Assembly: GCA_020832375.1 (NCBI GenBank)
Contig: JAFIEW010000023.1
Coordinates: 1-42,433, forward strand
Source: Cyclobacteriaceae bacterium
GTDB lineage: Bacteria; Bacteroidota; Bacteroidia; Cytophagales; Cyclobacteriaceae
Length of the DNA: 42,433 nucleotides
Direction: 5' to 3'
The notes under the pieces were generated by a model. The model ran no database searches. It saw only the letters and a program-made list of their open reading frames with translations, and was not told the DNA's origin. Positions 34,083-38,178 of the stretch are shown piece after piece (position 1 is the first letter of the stretch; every line of letters starts with the position of its first letter). The position numbers and the translations under genes were made by a program.

Positions 34083-34850
34083 ATGGACATAGCCAATTTA
34101 ATGCGTTTAGATGATAAGGTAGCCATCGTAACAGGGGCTTCAAAAGGTATAGGAGAATCAATTGCCGAAGCACTAGCAGCAGCGGGTGCTCGGGTGGTCG
34201 TAAGTAGTCGCAAGCAAGAGGCGGTAGACGAAGTAGCGGAAAACATCCGTAAAGCTGGTGGAGAGGCCAAAGCTATTGCTGCCAATGTTGGCAATATGGA
34301 GGAAAACAAAAAGCTAGTAGACAAAACCATCGAAGCCTACGGAAAGGTAGATATATTAGTGAACAATGCAGCTGCCAACCCTGTCTTTGGTCCAGCATTG
34401 AATACTGATGAAGCGGCTTTTGACAAAATCATGAATGTAAATGTAAAAGCGGCCTTTGAACTATCGAAGCTTGTTTACCCATCGATGAAGGCAAGTGGCG
34501 GCGGATCCATTATTAATATCAGCTCTATCGGCGGCATCAGTCCAGAGCCTGGCTTAGGTATTTATAGCGTTAGTAAAGCGGCTTTGATATCATTGAGCAA
34601 AGTGCTCGCGAAAGAGCTGGGCGATGACAACATCCGTGTGAATACTATTTGCCCAGGACTTATAAAGACCAAGTTTAGTGAAGCTTTATGGAGTAATGAG
34701 AAAATCATGAACCAAATGATGAAGTTGCTTCCGATCAAGCGAGTGGGTAAATCGGAGGAAATAGCTATGATGGCGCTTTTCCTTGCAGCCGATGCCTCAG
34801 GCTATACTACCGGAGCAACGCTTACTGCTGACGGAGGCTTTACCATCTAG
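34083..34850 (+). CDS. Short-chain dehydrogenase/reductase (SDR)
   Basis: A classical 255-residue SDR: TGASKGIG cofactor loop (17-24), VNNAA (93-97), active-site Ser about 147-148, YSVSK (Tyr161, Lys165) and a C-terminal GATLTADGGFTI. I chose the ATG at 34083, preceded by an A-rich Bacteroidota-type leader; an in-frame ATG at 34041 would add 14 non-conserved residues. SDRs of this type reduce or oxidise hydroxy/keto groups with NAD(P)H. It is encoded before an acyl-CoA dehydrogenase and an APH-type kinase, so a keto/hydroxyacyl-CoA substrate is likely (compare LvaD). Confidence 0.9.
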   Translation: MDIANLMRLDDKVAIVTGASKGIGESIAEALAAAGARVVVSSRKQEAVDEVAENIRKAGGEAKAIAANVGNMEENKKLVDKTIEAYGKVDILVNNAAANPVFGPALNTDEAAFDKIMNVNVKAAFELSKLVYPSMKASGGGSIINISSIGGISPEPGLGIYSVSKAALISLSKVLAKELGDDNIRVNTICPGLIKTKFSEALWSNEKIMNQMMKLLPIKRVGKSEEIAMMALFLAADASGYTTGATLTADGGFTI

Positions 34851-34859
34851 TCAGCTACA

Positions 34860-34941
34860 AATAGCCTTAGCGACCCGAAATAGCAGCCTAATGCCTCAAT
34901 CTTGATTTCCTTCTATTGATCATAGGCCATCTAAGGCTATT
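34860..34941. promoter_or_regulatory. Long-range inverted repeat in the SDR to acyl-CoA dehydrogenase gap
   Basis: AATAGCCTTAG (34860-34870) and CTAAGGCTATT (34931-34941) are perfect 11-bp inverted repeats 60 bp apart, filling most of the 145-bp gap. They could form a stem-loop in the operon transcript or be a pair of operator half-sites. Confidence 0.45.
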
Positions 34942-34995
34942 CGCTTTTCCATTCTCATGAAAATAAAGTTTTTTTAATGCTTGAAAACAAATAAT

Positions 34996-36213: not shown

Positions 36214-37273
36214 AAGTCAGCTAATAGACCATGCGCAGGAGGTACGCACTGGCGAGCTACCCGACTTGCAAGTATTGGGAACTTACCTTGCTAAGCAGGT
36301 GGATAGCTTCAGCGACAAAATCAATATTCAGCAATTTCCCGGCGGCTTTTCGAACCTCACCTACCTCATAGAAAGTAGTGGACAGGAGTACGTTCTTCGG
36401 CGACCACCCATCGGAGCAAATGTACGCGGCGGCCACGATATGGAGCGAGAATTTAAAGTGCTCAAAGCCTTAGAGGGTCACTTTGACAAAATACCAAAAG
36501 CGGTTTTTTATTGTGGAGATGAGGACGTGATCGGAGCACCTTTCTACGTAATGGAACGGGTGAAAGGCGTCATACTGCGCAATAAAGTACCTAAGGGACT
36601 TCACATGAGTGCCGACGACTTCAGTAAACTCAGTAGAAAAGCAATCGATCAGCTAGCCGATCTACACAAGGTAGACCTTGATAAAACAGGCCTCAATGCT
36701 CTAGGCAAAGGCGAAGGATACACCGAGCGACAAGTGAAAGGATGGATTAAGCGATACTATAATGCCGCTACCGACAAGCTTGCTGACATGGACAATACAG
36801 CGAGCTGGCTAGAATCCAACATCCCCGCCGATAGCGATAGTACCTTCATACATAATGACTTTAAATACGACAATTTGGTGCTTAACCCTAGCAATATCCA
36901 CGAGATACTCGCTGTATTGGATTGGGAAATGGCCACTGTTGGTGATCCGCTGATGGATTTGGGTACTTCTCTCGCCTATTGGACTGAAGAGGGGGATGAG
37001 AACGCTCTCAAGCCATTTAACATCTCATGGATGCCTGGCAATATGAGCAGGCAGGAAGTAGCTACATATTATGCCGAGCAATCGGGAAGAAAGCTCACTC
37101 ACCTCCCTTTTTACTACGCTTTTGGGTGCTTTAAAGTAGGGGTGATCTGCCAGCAAATATATGCGCGATTTGTAGCGGGCAAAACCAAAGACCCCCGCTT
37201 TGGCGCATTGATTTATGTGATCAAAGCTTGCGGACGCAATGCACAAAAAGCAATAGCAAGCGGTAAAATTTAA
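36197..37273 (+). CDS. APH-type phosphotransferase (ACAD10/11 kinase-like, LvaA-like)
   Basis: A 358-residue aminoglycoside-phosphotransferase-fold protein: FPGGFSNLTY (47-56, nucleotide loop), EYVLRRPP, the catalytic HNDFKYDN (219-226) and the metal-binding LDWEMATVGDP (241-251). This FSNLTY/VLRRPP subtype is the one fused to the dehydrogenase in ACAD10/11 and found as LvaA in Pseudomonas. There it phosphorylates the 4-hydroxyl of 4-hydroxyacyl-CoA so that phosphate can be eliminated. It overlaps the dehydrogenase gene by 17 bp and is followed 20 bp later by the 3-hydroxyacyl-CoA dehydrogenase gene. Antibiotic resistance is an unlikely role. Confidence 0.88.
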   Translation: MEQQDKSQLIDHAQEVRTGELPDLQVLGTYLAKQVDSFSDKINIQQFPGGFSNLTYLIESSGQEYVLRRPPIGANVRGGHDMEREFKVLKALEGHFDKIPKAVFYCGDEDVIGAPFYVMERVKGVILRNKVPKGLHMSADDFSKLSRKAIDQLADLHKVDLDKTGLNALGKGEGYTERQVKGWIKRYYNAATDKLADMDNTASWLESNIPADSDSTFIHNDFKYDNLVLNPSNIHEILAVLDWEMATVGDPLMDLGTSLAYWTEEGDENALKPFNISWMPGNMSRQEVATYYAEQSGRKLTHLPFYYAFGCFKVGVICQQIYARFVAGKTKDPRFGALIYVIKACGRNAQKAIASGKI

Positions 37274-37293
37274 GCAACAAAACCAACGAACAA

Positions 37294-38178
37294 ATGCAAG
37301 AAATCAAAAACTTTTTAGTGGTAGGTGCTGGCACTCTAGGCAGTAGAGTGGCACTTCAAGCTGCCATATCAGGGTATCAAGTGACCGTTTATGATGTCAC
37401 CGAGAAAGCCTTAGAGGCTTCAAAAAAGACGATGGATAAGATCACCAGTCAACTAATAAAATCAGGGCAGCTGGATGAAAGATCCTCATCTCAAGTAAAT
37501 CAAAACTTATTTTTCACCCTCGACCTCGATGAGGCTTGCAAGCACGCTGACTTCATTAATGAAAGTGTGACTGAGGATGTGGAAATCAAGAAGAAAGTAT
37601 GGAAGCAGCTCGGTGAGAAGTGCCCAGAGCATACTTTATTTACCACCAACACCAGCTATATGCTGCCGAGTTGGTTTGCCGAGGTAAGCGGCAGGCCTGC
37701 GAAGTTTTGTGCATTTCACTTTCACGACGTATTCTACAGCCGTGTAGTGGATGTTATGCCACATGAAGGCACAGATCCCGCTTTTTGTGACTTGCTCATG
37801 GAGGTAGGGAGGAAATTGAATCAGGTGCCTGTGTATATTAAGAAAGAATGGCCAGGGTATATTTTCAACACCATGCTACTTGCACTTCTCGGAGCAGCAG
37901 GCAGGTTGCTGAGTCATGAAGTGGCATCATTTCAAGATATAGACAGAAGCTGGATGGTCAACTTCCATATGCCGATGGGGCCCTTTGGCATCATGGATAG
38001 TATAGGCCTAGATACGGCATACCATGTAGTCAATGCGCGCGAGGACTCAGCTTCGAAGCGCTTTGCGAAGGTGCTCGAAAAATATGTGAAGGAAGGAAAG
38101 CTCGGGGAGAAAACTGGCGAAGGGTTTTATAAGTATCCGAAGCCTGAGTATTCACATCCGAATTTTGTAAAACCATAA
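37294..38178 (+). CDS. 3-hydroxyacyl-CoA dehydrogenase
   Basis: A 294-residue NAD-dependent enzyme: N-terminal Rossmann domain with GAGTLGS (11-17), the FINESVTEDVEIKKKVW helix and TNTSYMLPS block, the catalytic FHFHDVFYSRVVDVMPH stretch, and a C-terminal helical domain (GPFGIMDSIGLDT, GEKTGEGFYKYP). It converts L-3-hydroxyacyl-CoA to 3-ketoacyl-CoA. As the last gene of the operon it could continue beta-oxidation of the product of the kinase/dehydrogenase pair. No thiolase or CoA ligase gene is present in the window. Confidence 0.9.
   Translation: MQEIKNFLVVGAGTLGSRVALQAAISGYQVTVYDVTEKALEASKKTMDKITSQLIKSGQLDERSSSQVNQNLFFTLDLDEACKHADFINESVTEDVEIKKKVWKQLGEKCPEHTLFTTNTSYMLPSWFAEVSGRPAKFCAFHFHDVFYSRVVDVMPHEGTDPAFCDLLMEVGRKLNQVPVYIKKEWPGYIFNTMLLALLGAAGRLLSHEVASFQDIDRSWMVNFHMPMGPFGIMDSIGLDTAYHVVNAREDSASKRFAKVLEKYVKEGKLGEKTGEGFYKYPKPEYSHPNFVKP

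What the first reader, a model, noticed from the sequence alone, without database searches (positions are those of the whole stretch)
34083..38178. Probable 4-hydroxyacyl-CoA catabolic operon in a Bacteroidota genome
SDR, acyl-CoA dehydrogenase, APH-type kinase and 3-hydroxyacyl-CoA dehydrogenase are consecutive, and the kinase and dehydrogenase genes overlap by 17 bp. In Pseudomonas (LvaA, LvaC, LvaD) and in the mammalian ACAD10/11 fusions, such a kinase/dehydrogenase pair turns 4-hydroxyacyl-CoA into an ordinary beta-oxidation intermediate through a phosphorylated species. A split-gene version with its own hydroxyacyl-CoA dehydrogenase suggests use of levulinate, gamma-hydroxy acids or lactones.
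Basis: partly seen in the sequence, partly recalled or inferred. Interest (0 to 1): 0.65.

Follow-up and report, generated by a model that had tools for sequence, protein, structure and literature searches.

The report
4-hydroxyacyl-CoA rescue operon in Bacteroidota
Four neighbouring bacterial genes look like a separate branch of a recently described route that lets cells burn fatty acids blocked by a hydroxyl group on carbon 4, with two partner enzymes that the better known versions do not carry in this form.

Summary
In detail: SDR, ACAD, APH-type kinase and 3-hydroxyacyl-CoA dehydrogenase lie in a row at 34083-38178; ACAD and kinase overlap by 17 bp. The core is well supported by sequence. 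The ACAD carries the four residues that mouse ACAD11 uses on 4-phosphoacyl-CoA (R626, H634, R637, D753); so do 56 of 56 kinase-linked relatives, against 0 of 5 host paralogues scored. The kinase keeps the catalytic residues and both proposed CoA-contact arginines of ACAD11; 8 LvaA-type kinases lack those arginines.

It is not an lva operon: DUF6285 (LvaB-like) is absent from the genome, and no ligase, transporter or LvaR-like gene lies beside it. Kinase and ACAD form a third lineage beside LvaA/LvaC and ACAD10/11, found in many phyla. Split kinase/ACAD pairs are already known. Levulinate or lactone use is unsupported.

Two details look new: the linked dehydrogenase has Asp for the catalytic Glu in 23 of 23 rows, and the SDR shares a clade with animal DHRS4, which suggests a testable role for DHRS4. 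No activity was measured.

The parts
34083..34850 (+). SDR, 255 aa, in one clade with animal DHRS4 and other operon-linked SDRs; proposed 4-oxoacyl-CoA / 4-hydroxyacyl-CoA oxidoreductase (LvaD-like role)
   Evidence: Pfam PF13561/PF00106; best PDB match DHRS4 2zat 1.3e-61; clade 97/96. The role is inferred.
34996..36213 (+). ACAD10/11- and LvaC-related acyl-CoA dehydrogenase with the 4-phosphoacyl-CoA signature (RLGPGRIHHCMR ... YDGPDEVH)
   Evidence: Residues equivalent to mouse ACAD11 R626/H634/R637/D753 all present; inside the 100/100 clade of such ACADs
36197..37273 (+). APH-fold kinase, proposed 4-hydroxyacyl-CoA kinase; start overlaps the ACAD stop by 17 bp
   Evidence: PF01636 9.9e-47; PDB matches 9o56, ACAD11 8v3v, 3dxp; catalytic Asp/Asn, metal-binding Asp and both proposed CoA-contact Arg kept
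37294..38178 (+). 3-hydroxyacyl-CoA dehydrogenase of an operon-linked subfamily with Asp in place of the catalytic Glu
   Evidence: NF006143 329.9 bits against cut-off 312; Glu to Asp in 23 of 23 rows
38177..38204 (.). 12-pair hairpin flanked by A and T runs between the convergent genes; probable two-way terminator
   Evidence: Pattern scan, reported on the - strand; the scan as a whole found no more such sites than shuffles (5 against 4.4), so this rests on the stem length and the place

Best explanation
The four genes form a module that brings 4-hydroxy (and probably 4-oxo) acyl-CoAs into beta-oxidation. Inferred order: the SDR interconverts 4-oxoacyl-CoA and 4-hydroxyacyl-CoA; the kinase phosphorylates the 4-hydroxyl with ATP; the ACAD uses Asp and a flavin that ends in its starting oxidation state to eliminate phosphate and leave 2-enoyl-CoA; a hydratase encoded elsewhere (or in part the ACAD itself, as reported for ACAD10 and LvaC) gives 3-hydroxyacyl-CoA; the linked dehydrogenase makes 3-oxoacyl-CoA for thiolysis. 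Shown here by sequence: the kinase and ACAD active-site residues, the conserved linkage and the lineage. Inferred: all activities, the order of steps, the SDR role, the substrate length and the single transcript. The natural substrate is unknown; oxidised or hydroxylated fatty acids seem at least as likely as levulinate.
For: ACAD signature R/H/R/D in the window and in 56 of 56 linked ACADs, 0 of 5 host paralogues scored; in ACAD11, alanine or leucine at R626, H634 or R637 was most disruptive to this step, R637 to Lys only partly (PMC12440821 section 7). Kinase: catalytic Asp, Asn and metal-binding Asp in 98 of 98 window-type rows (a few genomes appear twice); the two proposed CoA-contact arginines in 98 of 98 and in 9 of 9 ACAD11-type rows, none of 8 LvaA-type rows. 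ACAD10/11 phosphorylate 4-hydroxyvaleryl-CoA but not the free acid. A split pair from Burkholderia can replace the two ACAD10 domains (PMC11342911, passages). All four genes are kept together in nine of 80 kinase-selected loci.
Against: No measured activity for this lineage came up in my paper searches. The kinase is 35% identical to the ACAD11 kinase and about 22% to LvaA-type kinases, in its own clade. 24 of 80 kinase loci lack a nearby ACAD; in three Pseudomonas loci (L138, L152, L197) the kinase sits with an SDR, in two of them also with a histidine phosphatase, and the signature ACAD lies elsewhere in the genomes where I could look (G351, G420). The 145 bp SDR-ACAD gap leaves room for a separate promoter. 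No CoA ligase or hydratase in the cluster.
Confidence: 0.8

Rival explanations
1. A levulinate (4-oxovalerate) or gamma-lactone catabolic operon equivalent to lva, specialised for short chains.
For: Same three core protein types as LvaA, LvaC and LvaD; the Pseudomonas citronellolis cluster also lacks LvaB (PMC6692424, passages).
Against: No DUF6285 match in the genome; no CoA ligase, permease or sigma-54 regulator among the neighbours scanned; kinase, ACAD and SDR all fall outside the clades of the lva-like operon proteins.
Confidence: 0.12
2. A detoxification route for lipid-peroxidation products such as 4-hydroxynonenal: the aldehyde is saturated and oxidised elsewhere, and this module burns the resulting 4-hydroxy acid.
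For: Proposed for mammalian ACAD10/11 (PMC12440821 discussion). In 6 of the extended relative loci a gene of one cluster stands divergent from the SDR; the one member scanned (L047) is a zinc-type MDR reductase. L061 to L063 share another cluster; the one member scanned (L061) matches PF16884 (that this family includes alkenal reductases is recalled).
Against: The window itself has neither gene beside the operon; substrates of those reductases are unknown.
Confidence: 0.25
3. Ordinary beta-oxidation genes next to an unrelated APH kinase that acts on something else.
For: The kinase occurs without a nearby ACAD in 24 of 80 loci; the curated family matches of the kinase are weak and unspecific.
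Against: The ACAD does not have the ordinary Glu-type active site; 56 of 56 kinase-linked ACADs carry the phosphate-binding signature.
Confidence: 0.05

Closest known systems
Mammalian ACAD10/ACAD11 (kinase-ACAD fusions, 4-hydroxy acid catabolism)
   Same: ACAD signature residues and catalytic Asp; kinase catalytic residues and proposed CoA-contact arginines; same predicted chemistry (only mouse ACAD11 was compared by sequence)
   Different: Two separate proteins, ACAD gene upstream of kinase gene; a neighbouring lineage rather than a member; linked SDR and 3HCDH genes
Pseudomonas lva operon (LvaA, LvaB, LvaC, LvaD, LvaE)
   Same: Split kinase, ACAD and SDR genes; ACAD signature shared
   Different: No LvaB, ligase, transporter or regulator beside it; kinase about 22% (25-27% in local alignments), ACAD about 38% and SDR 35% identical to the proteins of lva-like operons; the LvaA-type kinases lack the two arginines
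Burkholderia kinase/ACAD pair tested in PMC11342911 (Q63VL0, Q63VL1)
   Same: Split kinase and ACAD, shown to replace the ACAD10 domains (read in passages)
   Different: I did not compare sequences with it; the paper reports bacterial kinases up to 51% identical to the ACAD10 kinase, so it is probably of the ACAD10/11 lineage (inferred)
Animal DHRS4 (SDR)
   Same: Best solved-structure match of the window SDR, one clade with operon-linked SDRs
   Different: Not known to act on acyl-CoAs to my knowledge (recalled); its exact sister in that clade changed with the rows used
PRK08293-type 3-hydroxyacyl-CoA dehydrogenases, diketoreductase 4dyd
   Same: Family match, NAD-binding domain, catalytic His; over the NF006143 cut-off
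   Different: Catalytic Glu replaced by Asp, with a one-residue deletion against 4dyd and 6kq9; Asp in all 23 rows compared

Membership tests
ACAD10/11 and LvaC class of 4-phosphoacyl-CoA-acting ACADs | R626, H634, R637 and catalytic D753 (mouse ACAD11 numbering) | tested here: met
   All four present in the window ACAD, 56 of 56 linked, 0 of 5 host paralogues scored
ACAD10/11 and LvaC class of 4-phosphoacyl-CoA-acting ACADs | Common clade apart from Glu-type ACADs | tested here: met
   52-row clade 100/100 with three main parts, window in the third (the tool warns that a long outgroup branch meets this clade)
ACAD10/11 and LvaC class of 4-phosphoacyl-CoA-acting ACADs | Turns 4-phosphoacyl-CoA into 2-enoyl-CoA without an electron acceptor | not testable with these tools
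   Needs enzyme assay
4-hydroxyacyl-CoA kinases (ACAD10/11 kinase domain, LvaA) | Kinase catalytic Asp, Asn and metal-binding Asp | tested here: met
   Window D221, N226, D242; 98 of 98 window-type rows
4-hydroxyacyl-CoA kinases (ACAD10/11 kinase domain, LvaA) | Arginines proposed to hold CoA in ACAD11 (beside the alpha-C Glu; R176) | tested here: met
   98 of 98 window-type and 9 of 9 ACAD11-type rows; 0 of 8 LvaA-type. The first was identified by description, since the number R86 did not fit the chain; the LvaA alignment is uncertain around the second. Because LvaA-type kinases lack them, this marks likeness to ACAD11 only
4-hydroxyacyl-CoA kinases (ACAD10/11 kinase domain, LvaA) | Falls inside the LvaA or the ACAD10/11 kinase clade | tested here: not met
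   Third clade of its own, 48 rows 100/99; deep order unresolved, AU p 0.24 for a joint clade with ACAD11-type and 0.077 with LvaA-type
lva operon | LvaB-type partner (taken as DUF6285; gene order in lva-like operons fits) | tested here: not met
   0 matches in the host genome
lva operon | LvaR regulator, LvaE ligase and LvaF/G transporter next to lvaABCD | tested here: not met
   Neighbouring window genes scanned are of other families or without a match; an SSF symporter lies 28 kb away among glycan genes
ACAD10/11 proper | Kinase and ACAD fused in one chain | tested here: not met
   Separate ORFs, 17 bp overlap
3-hydroxyacyl-CoA dehydrogenase NF006143 | Curated score cut-off 312 bits | tested here: met
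   329.9 bits
3-hydroxyacyl-CoA dehydrogenase, classical | His-Glu catalytic pair (recalled) | tested here: not met
   His kept, Glu to Asp in 23 of 23 rows; the two best solved relatives have Glu there

The most novel reading that the evidence does not exclude
The operon shows which SDR belongs to the 4-hydroxy acid route across life: animal DHRS4, of the same SDR clade, is the missing 4-oxoacyl-CoA / 4-hydroxyacyl-CoA oxidoreductase that works with ACAD10 and ACAD11. The Asp-type 3-hydroxyacyl-CoA dehydrogenase is a form specialised for the products of this route.
Probability: 0.2. Interest if true: 0.75.

Novelty: new variant of a known kind. Interest (0 to 1): 0.5.

Why it matters
It extends the recently solved 4-hydroxy acid route to a third, widespread bacterial lineage and gives a simple sequence test (R/H/R/D in the ACAD, two arginines in the kinase) that finds it. 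Its partner genes make two open questions testable: what the DHRS4 type of SDR does, and why a 3-hydroxyacyl-CoA dehydrogenase tied to this route has Asp where others have Glu.

Tried and rejected
Rejected: plain beta-oxidation beside an unrelated kinase (the ACAD signature speaks against it). Rejected as stated: levulinate/lactone operon (no lva-specific partner genes found). Tried without result: a Bacteroidota-type promoter pattern gave no match upstream of the genes (4 in the window against 2.6 expected); a sigma-70 scan gave no excess (9 against 8.1). Of 20 neighbour proteins of related loci scanned, beyond reductases, SDRs, an ACAD, a histidine phosphatase and a hydrolase nothing consistent showed. 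No structure was predicted, since solved relatives already match by sequence. A second host APH protein (L260) was meant as outgroup, but the frame my script picked was another protein, so it was not used. Papers on this lineage were sought; none was found, but most subscription journals are not held.

Rows left out: the kinase tree used 41 selected window-type loci and 27 others beside the window and four PDB stretches; one search was thinned to 48 rows, with two long rows dropped. The ACAD tree used 28 of 56 linked ACADs. One of six host ACAD paralogues, a short frame, was not scored. The SDR trees hold selected rows, mostly taken near kinases.

Controls for the DHRS4 idea: a search with a DHRS4 stretch gave 14 of 274 genomes of the class of the Marinobacter genome (the tool scored at most 10 candidates a genome); only 3 of 14 hits lie beside a signature ACAD, one of them in the seed genome where I already knew it. 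DHRS4 grouped with two such bacterial SDRs (98/89) but not when more rows were added. Genomes with the SDR have a signature-type ACAD in 9 of 13, those without in 2 of 20 (one-sided Fisher p 0.0007), but the 20 were the first listed, many small, so this is a lead only.
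Full report
WHAT IS THERE. ACAD and kinase overlap by 17 bp; kinase and dehydrogenase are 20 bp apart; SDR and ACAD are 145 bp apart; 428 bp lie upstream. A hairpin with A and T runs closes the set before a convergent gene of a release-factor / ribosome-hibernation family. The host genome, 4.1 Mb, has one copy of the kinase.

THE ACAD. Its best solved relatives are 4hr3 and ACAD11 (274-290 bits), far ahead of the next ACAD (152 bits). In mouse ACAD11, R626, H634 and R637 are modelled on the 4-phosphate and D753 is the base; alanine or leucine at the three was most disruptive to the step (PMC12440821, sections 7 and 10 read, and passages). 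The window ACAD has all four. So do 56 of 56 ACADs found within 5 kb of related kinases and the 20 lva-like, Pseudomonas and plasmid relatives compared; 0 of 5 other ACADs scored in the host do, and those five align Glu with the base. In the tree these ACADs form one clade (52 rows, 100/100) with LvaC-type, ACAD11-type and window-type parts; the window-type part has 23 rows, 99/98 (the tool warns of a long outgroup branch meeting the clade).

THE KINASE. It is 35% identical to the ACAD11 kinase, 41% to 9o56 (named only aminoglycoside phosphotransferase) and about 22% to LvaA-type kinases. Catalytic residues are kept. Two arginines that modelling of ACAD11 puts on CoA are kept in 98 of 98 window-type and 9 of 9 ACAD11-type rows and in none of 8 LvaA-type rows (a few genomes appear twice among the 98). 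One of them I identified by its description, since its printed number did not fit the chain. Trees give three clades: window-type (48 rows, 100/99), ACAD11-type (9 rows, 100/100) and LvaA-type (8 rows, 100/99). How they join is not resolved.

HOW LvaA WAS FOUND. P. putida itself was not reached by name. I searched genomes of the genus of Pseudomonas sediminis for DUF6285 and found it in 24 of 298. In L242 the order divergent 651-aa ORF, kinase, 118-aa DUF6285 protein, ACAD, SDR, AMP-ligase, then a small and a long ORF, fits the published lvaRABCDEFG; the outer ORFs were not family-scanned. That DUF6285 is LvaB is recalled and rests here on gene order. These are therefore lva-like operons of unnamed Pseudomonas.

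LINKAGE AND SPREAD. With the kinase as query, 16 of 59 genomes of the relatives set and 22 of 296 of the phylum set match at E 1e-30; both counts include the host itself. 56 of 80 have a signature ACAD within 5 kb, 40 adjacent on the same strand. Nine of 80 have the full four-gene order; eight of the nine are Cyclobacteriaceae by title or genus, the ninth is a MAG titled Spirosoma fluviale. In three Pseudomonas loci the kinase goes with an SDR, in two of them also with a histidine phosphatase, and the ACAD lies apart.

THE SDR AND THE DEHYDROGENASE. The SDR's best solved match is DHRS4, 211 bits against 170 for the next family. Trees put window-type, Pseudomonas, Azoarcus and Marinobacter operon SDRs and DHRS4 in one clade (97/96), with LvaD-type SDRs outside it. 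The set was mostly drawn near kinases; the wider check was mixed (3 of 14 beside a signature ACAD; co-occurrence 9 of 13 against 2 of 20), and the exact sister of DHRS4 changed between the two trees. The 3-hydroxyacyl-CoA dehydrogenase passes NF006143, but in 23 of 23 rows, window included, Asp stands where the two best solved relatives have the catalytic Glu (L044 and L114 are the same genome).

MECHANISM AND SUBSTRATE. Kinase, then phosphate elimination by the ACAD, then hydration and oxidation, is the reading that fits (0.8). The SDR as 4-oxoacyl-CoA reductase is inferred from LvaD. The substrate is open: no ligase, transporter or LvaR-like regulator lies beside the genes, and the far part of the window is mostly glycan use.

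NOVELTY. The chemistry and split kinase/ACAD pairs are known (PMC11342911 and PMC6692424 read in passages; Rand et al. 2017 not held, known through them). New here, as far as my paper searches show, are the lineage, its signature test, its fixed partner genes and the two leads. I call it a new variant of a known kind.

Noticed in passing
window 2617-29827: A long run that looks mostly like glycan-use genes: SSF symporter, epimerase, SusC/SusD-like pair, DUF5018 proteins, GHL10 hydrolases, NAGPA-type and GH92 hydrolases.
   Followed up: partly
window 33640-33702: Tandem repeat of a TGAGCGG-like unit around the end of the upstream gene, seen by eye.
   Followed up: no
window 34083-38178: G+C of the four genes is 46%, window mean 39%, although the trees place the genes with family members.
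   Followed up: partly
L242, L243, L244, L221: PMC11342911 gives 62% and 56% identity of LvaC to the ACAD10 and ACAD11 domains, but ACADs of these lva-like operons are only 34-37% identical to mouse ACAD11; a separate Pseudomonas ACAD (L221) is 57%. Unexplained.
   Followed up: partly
L138, L152, L197, L140: 78 of 79 genomes of the genus of Pseudomonas sediminis have an APH-type kinase related to the Azoarcus one. In the three Pseudomonas copies looked at it sits with an SDR, in two also with a histidine phosphatase; in Marinobacter L140 with SDRs and a signature ACAD. A possible core 4-hydroxy acid locus.
   Followed up: partly
L043, L046, L047, L053, L056, L059: A gene of one cluster stands divergent from the operon SDR in these six loci; the one member scanned (L047) is a zinc-type MDR reductase.
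   Followed up: partly
window 38226-39398 (-): Bacterial archaeo-eukaryotic release factor family protein, below the cut-off of a ribosome hibernation factor model, convergent with the operon.
   Followed up: no
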